Of a stretch of DNA of 64,000 nt, positions 50,460 through 54,557 are shown in pieces. Below the pieces are notes generated by a model. It made no database searches, was not told where the DNA came from, and saw only the letters and a list, made by a program, of their open reading frames with translations. Origin of the DNA: Clostridia bacterium (GTDB lineage Bacteria > Bacillota > Clostridia > Christensenellales > CAG-138); assembly GCA_017438865.1 (NCBI GenBank), contig JAFRUN010000063.1, forward strand, positions 21,949 to 85,948, read 5' to 3'. Made by a program: the position numbers and the translations under genes. The first letter of the stretch is position 1; the number at the start of each line of letters is the position of its first letter.

Positions 50460-50924
50460 TCAGGTTTTCGTGATAAAAACGTGGCTGCATTTCGAGCAGG
50501 TCACGCGGATCCTGCCCTTGTGCCGCGGCGCGCGCATTTTCTGCCTGCATTGCGGGCAGCGAAAGTACTTGTACGTTTTGCGGTCTTTCCATTGCTGCTT
50601 TACGGATGCCCGCTTGCGGCGGAGCTTCTGCATACGGTATTGATAGCGTGTGTTCTCCGCCTGCCGCTTTGCGACGTTTTTTGAAAATACGCGGAAGAAC
50701 CACAGGATCAGAAGAATCAGCCCGAGTCCGTATGCGATAAAATACAGCACCCTGAACACCGTCGATGCAGCGGCCGCGTCGCGGCGCATAAACAGAATCG
50801 ACAGAAAGGTAAACAGGATCGCGCCGAACAGCCAGCCGAAGCTCAGTCGGTTGATAAAGACAGACAGCGCGTCGACGCCGTTTCTGCCCTCCATGAAACG
50901 ATACAAACGGTTACGAAAGCTCAT
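50460..50924 (-). CDS. Membrane protein with C-terminal zinc ribbon
   Basis: 154 residues: two membrane helices (about 29-45 and 60-80), a basic helical stretch (about 83-118), then a zinc ribbon with two CxxC pairs (YFRCPQCRQKM and VTCSKCSHVF). The ribbon resembles the MJ0042/zf-type used to bind nucleic acids or proteins. It overlaps the DnaJ-domain gene upstream by 14 bases, suggesting a joint function at the membrane. Not a known named protein. Confidence 0.82.
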   Translation of the reverse strand: MSFRNRLYRFMEGRNGVDALSVFINRLSFGWLFGAILFTFLSILFMRRDAAAASTVFRVLYFIAYGLGLILLILWFFRVFSKNVAKRQAENTRYQYRMQKLRRKRASVKQQWKDRKTYKYFRCPQCRQKMRAPRHKGRIRVTCSKCSHVFITKT

Positions 50925-51498
50925 TCTGTTCTCCTATGACAAAATCGTTTCCGGCGTCATTGGAACGATAGGCGTCCGTCCCGTAGCAGGCGCCGTAAAC
51001 GGGATATAAACAGGTATAGAACAACCCGTTGAATACGCATCGCGTCAGCATCAGGATCATCAGAAACGCCAGAACAAGATACAGGATGCGAACCCTGCGG
51101 TAGCGCACGGTATTCGCTCTTCTGCGCTGCTGTTCCTCAAAGATCGAACCCCAGCCGAACGGCGGTTCGTTTCCGTCGTTCCCCTGGTTTCCCGTGTAGG
51201 ATCCGCCGTAATATCCCTGACCGGTGCGATAATACGTCTGCCACGGGTTGGACTGCTGATATCCGGACTGCTGATAGAAGGTCTGCGTTTTTTGCGCGTC
51301 GCGGTAAGCGGCACGCTTCTCCGCCGTCTTGATCTGATCGTATGCGACGTTGACGTCGTTCATCTTCGCGGCGGCGTACGGATCGTTCGGATTCAGATCG
51401 GGATGGTACTGCTTGGCAAGACGCCGGTATGCGGCGCGGATCTCTTCGTCCGTCGCCGTTTCCGAAACGCCGAGAACCGTATACGGATTCTTTGCCAT
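50911..51498 (-). CDS. DnaJ-domain membrane protein
   Basis: 195 residues: an N-terminal J domain (about 5-68) with the HPD motif in KQYHPDLNPND, a Gln/Gly/Tyr-rich linker (about 75-115), and one or two C-terminal hydrophobic helices (VRILYLVLAFLMILML). It lacks the zinc-finger and substrate domains of true DnaJ. Such J-domain membrane proteins recruit DnaK to a local task. It is coupled to the downstream zinc-ribbon membrane protein, a possible substrate or partner. Confidence 0.88.
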   Translation of the reverse strand: MAKNPYTVLGVSETATDEEIRAAYRRLAKQYHPDLNPNDPYAAAKMNDVNVAYDQIKTAEKRAAYRDAQKTQTFYQQSGYQQSNPWQTYYRTGQGYYGGSYTGNQGNDGNEPPFGWGSIFEEQQRRRANTVRYRRVRILYLVLAFLMILMLTRCVFNGLFYTCLYPVYGACYGTDAYRSNDAGNDFVIGEQNELS

Positions 51499-51533: not shown

Positions 51534-51562
51534 ATGTTACCCAATTTTGGCTCTTTCGTCAA
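51534..51562 (-). promoter_or_regulatory. Promoter of the DnaJ-domain operon
   Basis: -35 TTGACG (51562-51557), a 17-base spacer and -10 TAACAT (51539-51534) on the minus strand, leader about 30 bases. Confidence 0.7.
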
Positions 51563-51586
51563 TGGAGTTCACAAGATTGTTGCATT

Positions 51587-53581
51587 CTATGCTGCAATTC
51601 CCGGCATTTTGTATTTCACGATATCCTTTGCGAACTTGACCTTCTGCTTCGGATCGCAGATGTCCTGACCGACCTGACGCTGGTACTTGAACTCAAACGT
51701 GCCGTACTTGCCGCGACCTTCCATCTCGTCCTGCACCGCGCCTGCTCTGCGGAACGCTTCGGCTTCTTCCACGCTTGCAGCGTCCACACGCGCAAGATCG
51801 TTATGCTCTGCAAGCAGTTTCATCATTGCCACGCGCTGACGGATCGTGCCGCCGTCCAGCTCCACATCGTTGCCGATCAGCGTTGCTTTGCTGTCCTTCA
51901 ACTCAAACGTGCGCGTGTTGCCGTGGCGGTTCAGTTTGATGTTGTCCATCGTGCTGTACCGAATATCATCATCGTTCTTGTTGAACCGTTCGGACAGCGG
52001 AATGATGTTGCCGTCGTTGTCGTAGGTTACAAGGTCTGCGGACTTAATTTGCGACGGATCAAATACGGAATACTCCGTTTCTACTCCTCTCTCCATTTTC
52101 CATATAATACCGTCATACCCTTTTGCTTGCAGTTTTGCAATATCTTTCCTTTGCAAAAGCTGGCTTTGATTCGCCTGGTTGCGAACACGCTCATTATAAA
52201 TGCGATCACTCCCGTATGCCACTCGCAGAATTTCTTTCGCCGGATCTGCAGACGATACGTTCAGCGGATTGTTGATCTTCAAGAAAGCCCCGTAAACCTT
52301 GCCGCCGTCGCCCATTCTATTTGCATACCGTTGCGCGGTATCTTGTCTGTCAGAAAAATAGATTCCGCTTCCAAGATAACCGCCCTTGCCTCGTTTGAAT
52401 ACGGTAATATCCTTGTAGTAATCTGTTCCATGATACGCACGACCGTATATATATCCGTTTGCCTTTGCCGCCGCGTCAACCGCTTTCCGCAGCGTTTCCG
52501 TTTCCGCGTCCGTCGTCGTGCCGTCCTTGACCTTCTGCGCAAAGGAAAGATATTCCTTGTCGGATAGCTTGACAGAATCGGTTTTAGAGGATATACTATC
52601 AATAGATGATTTGGGATTAACAATGCTCAACCACTTGTACAGTTGAGGGTTAACTTGTTCCAAGTCATTTTTTTGGTATTCTACGGAGACGGCTTTTTGA
52701 GAAAGGTTCTTTATGTAGTTATCCTTTGCTGGCGTTACCGTTACAACAAGATTGTAGTAATCATACTTATCATCTACATTTTGAATAGTATTCAGTTCTG
52801 CGCTGACAATGCTTGTGTTCCCCTTTTTATGGACAACCGATCCAAGAAGATTAAGCCGACCATTTCCCAAACGTAGTATTGCATCGGGTTTATTCAAAAT
52901 ACGTCTTACAATCCTCCCAAAGGAAGCACCATAATTATGATAGTGTCCTTCAAGAATTCCTTCGTGGCGTATAGCAAGGTATGCTGCGTCAAACCGCATT
53001 ACGACAGGAAGGTTCTTTGCGTCTTTTACATTGTCAGTTATTACACTCGGCGTATCATCCATAACATTGACAAAGCGACCATCCTCTTTCATCTGTAGAG
53101 CATCGCTGTCGCTCATTTTCAATATCGTTTCGACGTTTTGATCAAGCGATACGCTATCCATAAAAGACATCCGAACACTGCCTTCAGCTTTTTGAATTTC
53201 TGTCCGCTTCTTCTCCAGCGCATTGACCGCGTTGCTCCACAGCCGTGCGATATCGTCGATATCAGCGACCTGCGAAAGGATCTCCTGCTCCGGCGACATA
53301 TCGTTGTAGATGCCCTTCTCTGTTGCGCGAAGCTCCGCATCGTCAAACACACGCCGCATATCCGTGTTCATCTGCGTCAGGAATTCAGAGATCGCCTTTG
53401 CGGACTTGTAGTTTTTCTTCGCAAAGCTCTGTACGAAGATGCGGTTCGCAAGGAAACTCTCGCAGCACCGGGCGATGACTTCCTCTTCCGCGTCGGAATC
53501 ATATCCTCTTGCCTTCTCATATTCGACAAGCGCGTCGTAAAGGTTCTCCGTCTTATTGATATACTTGACCACTCTGTCCAT
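51587..53581 (-). pseudogene. Polyvalent-protein remnant with an ADP-ribosyltransferase-like domain
   Basis: 664 residues from the first ATG, but sense coding continues upstream (SELNLSYD before the Met) to a stop at 53630-53632, so the 5' end appears lost. Residues 1-130 are helical. Residues about 160-300 resemble the MuF-C region of phage polyvalent proteins (VVMRFDAAYLAIRHEGILEG). Residues about 376-520 resemble ART-PolyVal: H384 in AYHGT, Y408 in GSGIYFSD and E503 in ETEYSVFDPSQIK. The DDDIRYS motif typical of mobile-element polyvalent proteins follows. Its central part is AT-richer than the neighbours. It may still be expressed from a later start. Confidence 0.72.
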
Positions 53582-53646
53582 ATCGTAAGACAGATTCAGC
53601 TCGGACGCGGTGCGTCGCTCATGCGCAATTTATTTGTTATTCAAAA

Positions 53647-53675
53647 TTGACACGCGTTTCAGAACATGGTATGAT
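53647..53675 (+). promoter_or_regulatory. Promoter of degV
   Basis: Perfect -35 TTGACA (53647-53652), 17-base spacer, -10 TATGAT (53670-53675); AGGAGG follows at 53682-53687 before ATG 53697. Confidence 0.85.
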
Positions 53676-53696
53676 TTCAAAAGGAGGAGAAGATAT

Positions 53697-54557
53697 ATGA
53701 ATCCTGTTAAATTGATCGCGGACAGCTCCTGCGATATCGGGCCGGAGCTTGCAAAACGGTATGACGTCGATTTCGTGCATATCCATGTTCGTCTGAACGG
53801 AAACGAGTATCTCGACGGTGTGAATATCACGCACAAAGAGATTTACGCCAATTATGAAGAAAAGCATACCCTTCCCAGCACCTGCGCCATGAACATCGAC
53901 GAATACGCAGCCGTGTTCAGACCCTATATCGAAAAGGGGTATGACATCGTTCATGTCTCGCTCGGAAGCGGTCTTTCGTCCACCTGCGGCAACGCGCGTC
54001 TCGCGGCGGAAATGTTCGGACCGGATCGCGTGTTCGTCATCGATTCCAAGAGCTTGTCCACCGGCAGCGGGCATATCGTATGTGAATGCGGCGAGCGCAT
54101 CAAAAAGGGGCTCGGCGCAAAGCAGATCTACGAAGAAGTTACGCCCATTACGGACAAGGTCAGCGCGTCGTTCATTCTCGACGATCTGAAGTATCTGCAC
54201 GCGGGCGGTCGCTGCTCGGGGCTTGCGCAGTTCGGCGCGTCGCTGATGAACATCAAGCCGTGCATCATGGTTCGCAACGATCTGTTCGGTTCCATGACCG
54301 TCGGCAAGAAGTATATGGGTTCCTATAAGCGCAGCGCGCTGAAGTATGTGGAGAATATGATCAAGGACCGCACCGATATCGTCCTTGACCGCTGCTTCAT
54401 CACGCACTCCGGCTCGGATCCCGAGGTGCTTGAAGCCATGAAGATGCTCGCGACGGAGCTTCAGCCGTTCAAAGAGATCCACATCACGCAGGCAAGCGCG
54501 ACGATCTGCGCACATTGCGGACCGAATACCACGGGCATTCTGTTTATCACGAAATAA
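53697..54557 (+). CDS. DegV family fatty-acid-binding protein
   Basis: 286 residues. DegV/FakB proteins bind a fatty acid and present it to FakA (encoded here at 20106-21761) for phosphorylation, feeding exogenous fatty acids into phospholipids. Motifs: N-terminal LIADSSCDI, LPSTCAMN, VSLGSGLSSTCGNA and the C-terminal THSGSDPEV. Promoter and ribosome binding site are strong. The next gene starts within the stop codon (TAATG). Confidence 0.93.
   Translation: MNPVKLIADSSCDIGPELAKRYDVDFVHIHVRLNGNEYLDGVNITHKEIYANYEEKHTLPSTCAMNIDEYAAVFRPYIEKGYDIVHVSLGSGLSSTCGNARLAAEMFGPDRVFVIDSKSLSTGSGHIVCECGERIKKGLGAKQIYEEVTPITDKVSASFILDDLKYLHAGGRCSGLAQFGASLMNIKPCIMVRNDLFGSMTVGKKYMGSYKRSALKYVENMIKDRTDIVLDRCFITHSGSDPEVLEAMKMLATELQPFKEIHITQASATICAHCGPNTTGILFITK

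What the first reader, a model, noticed from the sequence alone, without database searches (positions are those of the whole stretch)
51587..53632. Orphan polyvalent-protein fragment with a possible H-Y-E ADP-ribosyltransferase
Polyvalent proteins travel in phages and conjugative elements and carry toxins or defence-inhibiting enzymes into the recipient. Here the C-terminal part stands alone between housekeeping genes, with the upstream part lost at about 53632, yet with about 2 kb of frame intact. H384, Y408 and E503 fit the catalytic set of ADP-ribosyltransferases. An intact frame after isolation may mean it has been kept for a new use, such as defence or toxicity.
Basis: partly seen in the sequence, partly recalled or inferred. 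Interest (0 to 1): 0.72.

Follow-up and report, generated by a model that had tools for sequence, protein, structure and literature searches.

The report
Stranded slice of phage effector gene
A 2-kilobase piece from the middle of a giant phage gene, still encoding an intact-looking ADP-ribosyltransferase domain, lies stranded between two housekeeping genes of a Clostridia-like bacterium, most likely a recent and silent passenger rather than a gene put to new use.

Summary
The 664-codon frame (51587-53581, minus strand) is real and carries ART-PolyVal (E 1.5e-29). It is not the C-terminal part of a polyvalent protein but an internal slice cut at both ends: its flanks match aa ~1224-1391 and ~1638-1745 of a 3367-aa frame beside terminase, portal and capsid genes in same-genus genome G012. 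G012 has a PBECR3-like stretch where the window has the ART, so this is a variable effector slot. All 8 same-genus orthologues of the site that were found are empty: ~2.0 kb sits between two divergent host promoters, both kept. The last eight codons and stop are host DNA. No promoter-like site lies upstream of the frame. The insert abuts the longest stretch (358 bp) identical to the nearest species, so an intact frame fits recent arrival. Domestication lacks positive evidence but is not excluded. H384 and Y408 hold; the near-invariant acidic residue of the family is D490, not E503. Isolated slot pieces in two to four other genomes leave a cassette-reservoir reading open. No structure could be predicted.

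The parts
51613..53630 (-). Inserted internal slice of a giant phage polyvalent-protein gene (left junction about 51613; right junction somewhere in 53608-53643)
   Evidence: Empty site in 8 same-genus genomes; phage homology ends at 51614 (aa 656) and at 53608
51587..53581 (-). 664-codon open frame; its ATG is an internal codon of the phage gene, its last 8 codons and stop are host DNA
53144..53581 (-). N-flank (aa 1-146), 50-53% identical to aa 1236-1391 of the G012 giant; 25-28% in G019
52643..52975 (-). Possible divergent MuF_C/PBECR-like module (aa ~203-313); weak evidence
   Evidence: i-E 4e-4 (search of one sequence), hhalign E 0.0016, probability 15.9%, against 0.39-0.55 for three shuffles; no similarity to the G012 PBECR3 stretch (E 0.82); no Pfam match
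52034..52435 (-). ART-PolyVal ADP-ribosyltransferase domain (aa 383-516); H384, Y408, D490, E503
51953..52021 (-). Linker DNDGNIIPLSERFNKNDDDIRYS (aa 521-543), a common form after ART in phage giants
51614..51937 (-). C-flank domain (aa 549-656), 42-43% identical to aa ~1638-1745 of the G012 giant; no Pfam name
51534..51562 (-). Promoter-like site of the host DnaJ-domain gene, kept beside the insert
53647..53675 (+). Promoter-like site of host degV, kept beside the insert
53644..54001 (.). 358-bp tract identical to G004, abutting the insert; recent recombination
50911..51498 (-). Host DnaJ-domain gene
53697..54557 (+). Host degV gene

Best explanation
The feature is a ~2.0-kb internal slice of a giant (3,000-4,000 aa) phage polyvalent-protein gene that entered this chromosome recently by illegitimate recombination, in the spacer between the divergent promoters of a DnaJ-domain gene and degV. 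In the phage this stretch is a variable effector slot between conserved parts. By analogy with described polyvalent proteins (inferred, not shown) the giant would be packaged and injected, and the ART would ADP-ribosylate host macromolecules early in infection, while PBECR-type modules in related phages would cut RNA. In the window the slice has lost its native start, stop, promoter and delivery parts, so it is most likely silent, and its frame is intact because it is young. Shown: domain, slice nature, slot variability, empty site, retained host promoter-like sites. Inferred: mechanism of entry, silence, youth.
For: ART-PolyVal E 1.5e-29. Both flanks colinear with one 3367-aa frame beside terminase, portal and major head genes in G012. 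Between the flanks that frame has a PBECR3-like stretch (26.4 bits, below the cut-off of 30). G012 and G019 giants match on both sides of the slot and not in it. DnaJ-DegV spacer empty in 8 of 8 same-genus orthologues found, out of 14 other same-genus genomes searched. No other piece of the G012 giant in the window's own assembly. Phage homology stops at 51614 and host homology at 51612. No promoter-like site upstream of the frame; host ones at both edges. Longest exact match to G004, 358 bp against a next-best 134 bp in 27.1 kb aligned, abuts the insert. Neutral simulation: a frame this long survives with probability 0.22 if the insertion is 5% of the branch old, 0.042 at 10%.
Against: No close source phage was found, so slice borders rest on ~43-53% identical relatives. 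The ART and both flanks are uninterrupted, which selection would also give. One promoter-like site (52222-52193) lies inside the frame. Isolated slot pieces recur in other genomes of the family, which plain chance insertion does not predict.
Confidence: 0.75

Rival explanations
1. Domesticated effector: the host keeps and expresses the ART for defence or toxicity.
For: 664 uninterrupted codons; the conserved ART residues are present.
Against: No promoter-like site upstream of the frame; no ribosome-binding site seen at the ATG; ATG is an internal phage codon; stop is host DNA; in the 22 other same-genus genomes searched a match was found only in giant frames (G012, G019) and as a short piece (G008); best PADLOC matches E 0.008 and 0.012.
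Confidence: 0.08
2. Orphan cassette: slot slices with homology arms on both sides persist in chromosomes as donors that recombine into the slot of phage giants, as cassettes are thought to do in polymorphic toxin systems.
For: The slice is arm + module + arm. Isolated slot pieces in the window, G344, G323, perhaps G232 (contig end), and a 63-codon match in G008; the same 103 genomes gave 1 isolated piece for the N part and 0 for the C part of the G012 giant. Iyer et al. 2017 raise recombining cassettes next to a polyvalent gene (passage).
Against: The counts are biased: the slot query is the window's own sequence, the window is counted, ART is a widespread domain, and the source phages differ from G012. 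That G323 and G232 frames derive from giants is inferred from domains only. No recombination event was seen. No giant was found in G000, though its assembly is 79.5% complete.
Confidence: 0.12
3. In-place relic: a whole prophage integrated here and decayed to this piece.
For: G008 keeps a 180-bp match to the same phage gene near tRNA-Glu, as a relic would.
Against: No tRNA gene at the site and no phage family among the neighbours tested; the G012 prophage lies by a tRNA-Ser ~31 kb away in synteny; only 17-101 bp separate the host blocks in relatives; frame undamaged. Attachment repeats were not searched for separately.
Confidence: 0.1
4. Assembly artefact: phage sequence joined wrongly into the genome.
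For: Fragmented assembly (67 contigs, 79.5% complete); a 358-bp tract shared with another species begins at the right edge; G004 contigs begin in that tract with 99 bp overlap.
Against: Two separate false joins would have to fall in the same short spacer with host sequence correct on both sides; the contig is 156 kb.
Confidence: 0.06

Closest known systems
ART domains of phage polyvalent proteins (Pfam PF18760 ART-PolyVal; Tox-ART-HYD2 clade, Iyer et al. 2017, PMC5512222)
   Same: Pfam match far above cut-off; H in YHGT, Y in GxYF and a near-invariant D490; found in phage giants in one or several copies
   Different: Here cut out of its giant protein and without delivery parts, start or stop of its own
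Giant frame matching PHROG 22978 (unknown function) in G012, G019 and G026
   Same: Flanks of the slice are homologous to the middle of the G012 frame, the N-flank also to G019; phage gene neighbours shown for G012 only
   Different: Window has about a fifth of the length
MuF polymorphic toxins of temperate phages (Jamet et al. 2017, PMC5576092, passages seen)
   Same: Variable toxin domains, ADP-ribosyltransferases among them, attached to a phage virion protein
   Different: Here the variable part is internal to a giant frame; no MuF domain matched in the slice

Membership tests
ART-PolyVal (PF18760) | Profile match over the curated cut-off | tested here: met
   104 bits against 31.2, E 1.5e-29
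ART-PolyVal (PF18760) | H-Y-D active site (Iyer et al. 2017) | tested here: inconclusive
   H384, Y408 and D490 present, D490 conserved in 75 of 79 rows; that D490 is the strand-5 aspartate is inferred, no structure available
ART-PolyVal (PF18760) | ADP-ribosyltransferase activity | not testable with these tools
   needs biochemistry; a profile search of PDB sequences gives only weak PARP14 matches, E 0.34-0.42
Polyvalent protein | Several effector domains in one long polypeptide | tested here: inconclusive
   ART certain, MuF_C-like module weak; the slice is 664 aa
Polyvalent protein | Encoded by a phage or conjugative element among structural or transfer genes | tested here: not met
   window neighbours are host genes; met for the G012 relative. 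The window frame is a fragment of one, not a member
MuF_C domain (PF18819) | Profile match over the curated cut-off | tested here: not met
   not listed at E up to 10; weak local-profile similarity only
Anti-phage defence gene | Match to a known defence family | tested here: not met
   best PADLOC matches E 0.008 and 0.012, about 14 bits, partial

The most novel reading that the evidence does not exclude
Effector-slot slices of giant phage proteins are recurrently captured in chromosomes of this bacterial family as orphan cassettes: toxin module plus homology arms, silent where they lie, but able to recombine into the slot of resident or incoming phages, so that the host chromosome acts as a reservoir for the diversity of phage-injected effectors.
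Probability: 0.1. Interest if true: 0.7.

Novelty: new member of a known kind. Interest (0 to 1): 0.34.

Why it matters
It shows a variable effector slot in the middle of giant phage frames of Clostridia-like bacteria (PBECR3-like, MuF_C, ART, possibly a metallopeptidase in different genomes) and a clean case, with empty sites in relatives, of a phage slice inserted between two host promoters. If slot slices prove over-represented, they would be a chromosomal store of phage effector modules. For annotation it warns that a long intact frame with a good toxin-like domain can be a recent, probably silent fragment.

Tried and rejected
Single-sequence look-ups for near relatives confirmed none in genome contigs (4 pattern matches) or viral contigs (3); flank alignments confirmed none in viral contigs (56 and 185 pattern matches). 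INPHARED phages gave 2 records and plasmids 1, over the ART part only. PDB by sequence: best E 1.7 for the whole protein; ART profile weakly PARP14. NCBIfam: no match. Empty site for the G344 slice could not be shown: nucleotide synteny with relatives stops at its edge. That the slice lies at the integration site of the G012 phage: rejected, that phage lies by a tRNA-Ser ~31 kb away in synteny; its other end was not located. Age by neutral simulation is rough: 4-fold divergence to G004 0.30 raw, 0.38 Jukes-Cantor over 8 genes (degV included), half assigned to the branch, indels set at 5% of substitutions by assumption; P(intact) 0.042 at 10% and 0.22 at 5% of the branch (without indels 0.33 and 0.57). 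Literature: the five terms polyvalent, orphan, cassette, polymorphic toxin, phage gave no paper holding all five; among titles and abstract openings listed (15 of 54; 1 of 1; 12 of 74) I saw nothing on such slices, but did not read those papers, apart from PMC5512222. This covers only the held library.

Full report
What is there. The minus-strand frame 51587-53581 has 664 codons without a stop. Pfam lists one family, ART-PolyVal, aa 383-516, E 1.5e-29, 104 bits against a cut-off of 31.2. PHROGs gives only families of unknown function (best E 3.2e-5), NCBIfam nothing. G+C of the insert is 0.477 against 0.556 for the window.

It is an internal slice. In same-genus genome G012, aa 1-142 match aa 1236-1390 of a 3367-aa frame at 50% identity, and aa 552-656 match aa 1638-1745 at 43%. 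A search with the first 2000 aa of that protein extends the match upstream of the window ATG, to position 53608. The G012 frame lies beside genes matching PHROGs for terminase large subunit, portal, major head and a virion structural protein. It matches PHROG 22978, as do giants in G019 (3032 aa) and G026 (3318 aa), whose gene neighbours I did not test. So the window lacks about 1,220 aa before and 1,600 aa after. No other piece of the G012 giant was found in the window's own assembly, which is 79.5% complete.

A variable effector slot. By BLAST the G012 and G019 giants match over 5-1391/9-1345 and 1781-3147/1668-2964 and not between. In the gap G012 has a PBECR3-like stretch (E 6.9e-6, 26.4 bits, below the cut-off of 30) and G019 a stretch without a Pfam match. 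G327, another giant of the family, has a weak SprT-like match at aa 1241-1295, after its N-flank match at aa 1050-1132 (20.8 bits, below the cut-off of 25.6). G026 has MuF_C and a split ART match. The window has the ART and, before it, a region weakly like MuF_C: i-E 4e-4 against a profile of 8 domain hits (two of them duplicates), hhalign E 0.0016 with probability 15.9%, three shuffles 0.39-0.55, and no similarity to the G012 PBECR3 stretch (E 0.82). I treat this as possible, not shown.

ART in phages. With the 3 loci from genome contigs, 82 of 83 have an ART hit by phmmer; 41 of the 82 frames are closed at both ends within the locus. Of the 39 closed viral frames 34 are longer than 1,600 aa (near-duplicate contigs not removed). 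Several carry two or more copies. The set was gathered through patterns in the linker after the ART, so it favours this type. Only 6 frames matched the conserved C part of the G012 giant and none its N part, so many are other kinds of giant.

Catalytic residues. In an alignment of 79 rows (window plus 78 domains, duplicates such as L066/L161 and L067/L160 not removed) H384 is H in 72, 408 is Y in 47 and F or W in 21, D490 is D in 75, E503 is E in 35, K513 is K in 77. Iyer et al. (PMC5512222, section 9 read) describe H in strand 1, Y in strand 2 and D in strand 5. I infer that D490 is that aspartate. E503 sits where, from memory, PARP enzymes have their glutamate, so it is not excluded. A profile of 34 ART domains finds PARP14 chains among PDB sequences, only at E 0.34-0.42. 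Structure prediction was never available (ten busy answers, then switched off).

The empty site. One search covered 14 other same-genus genomes. DegV orthologues of 86% identity or more were found in 8; the other 6 had only matches of 39-44%. All 8 (G004, G006, G009-G014) have the DnaJ-domain gene next to DegV without the insert. Between the matched blocks lie 17 bp in G004 and 35-101 bp in the others. Host similarity to G004 runs to 51612 (weaker from 51593) and phage similarity starts at 51614, so the last eight codons and the stop are host DNA. On the right the junction lies between 53608 and 53643. Promoter-like sites of the DnaJ-domain gene (51562-51534, -) and of DegV (53647-53675, +) flank the insert. 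No minus-strand site is listed upstream of the frame; one lies inside it at 52222-52193 (8 sites in the region, 3.7 expected, sd 2.2). I saw no Shine-Dalgarno-like sequence before the ATG.

Age. From 53644 to 54001 the window is identical to G004 over 358 bp; the next longest identical run in 27.1 kb aligned is 134 bp, mean identity 0.869. Identity falls gradually to ~0.82 by 54.7 kb. This is a recent exchange that ends at the insert edge. One homologous and one illegitimate end would fit homology-facilitated illegitimate recombination (PMC3240628, start of abstract seen), but the tract and the insert could be separate events. By simulation a neutral frame survives with probability 0.042 if the insertion happened 10% of the branch ago, 0.22 at 5%, and 0 of 4,000 runs at 50% or 100%, with indels. 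So intactness means young or selected, and alone does not show selection.

Not the only slice. In 103 genomes of the family P0001 matched 8: giant frames in G012, G019 and G026; the window; a 755-codon frame in G344 with MuF_C and ART between GltX/YchF and SecA genes; an 869-codon frame in G323 with ART and LPD3, near FAD oxidoreductase and LysR genes; a 744-codon frame with LPD3 at a contig end in G232; and a 63-codon match in G008 near tRNA-Glu. With the N part of the G012 giant the same genomes gave three giants and one short piece with a stop in G020; with the C part, as sequence and as a four-member profile, only four giants. Slot pieces are thus commoner (4-5, the window included, against 1 and 0). 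But the query was the window's own slot, the ART is a widespread domain and the source phages differ, so I draw no conclusion. In wider samples ART-PolyVal was found in 13 of 297 genomes of the order and P0001 relatives in 3 of 391 of the class, the own genome counted in each.

Verdict. A recent, probably silent fragment of a known kind of phage effector gene. Domestication is possible but has no positive evidence. The recurrence of slot slices is the part worth a proper count.

Noticed in passing
window 53644-54001: 358 bp identical to another species (G004, mean identity 0.87) start at the insert edge; G004 contigs C15 and C64 both begin inside this tract and overlap by 99 bp, as if it occurred in two contexts in that sample.
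   Followed up: partly
window ~51555-51581: A 27-column run (TTCGTCAATGCAGTTCACAAGATTGTT) upstream of the DnaJ-domain gene is invariant in 8 same-genus genomes and spans its -35 box; the window has one change in it, next to the insert. Possible regulatory site.
   Followed up: no
L010:8611-9195: In G008 a 180-bp match to the same phage gene and a small further frame (69 codons) lie between a gene that looks Nudix-like by eye and tRNA-Glu; reads as a prophage relic.
   Followed up: partly
L009:537-630 (G012:C1 ~65.5 kb): The G012 prophage with the giant gene lies beside a tRNA-Ser; synteny with the window contig begins at that tRNA.
   Followed up: partly
L067:5352-7616 and L066:8379-10985: Two further isolated frames with effector-slot domains (MuF_C+ART; ART+LPD3) among host genes in other genera of the family.
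   Followed up: partly
L188:8899-18156: Giant frame in G327 with a weak SprT-like metallopeptidase match in the slot position.
   Followed up: no
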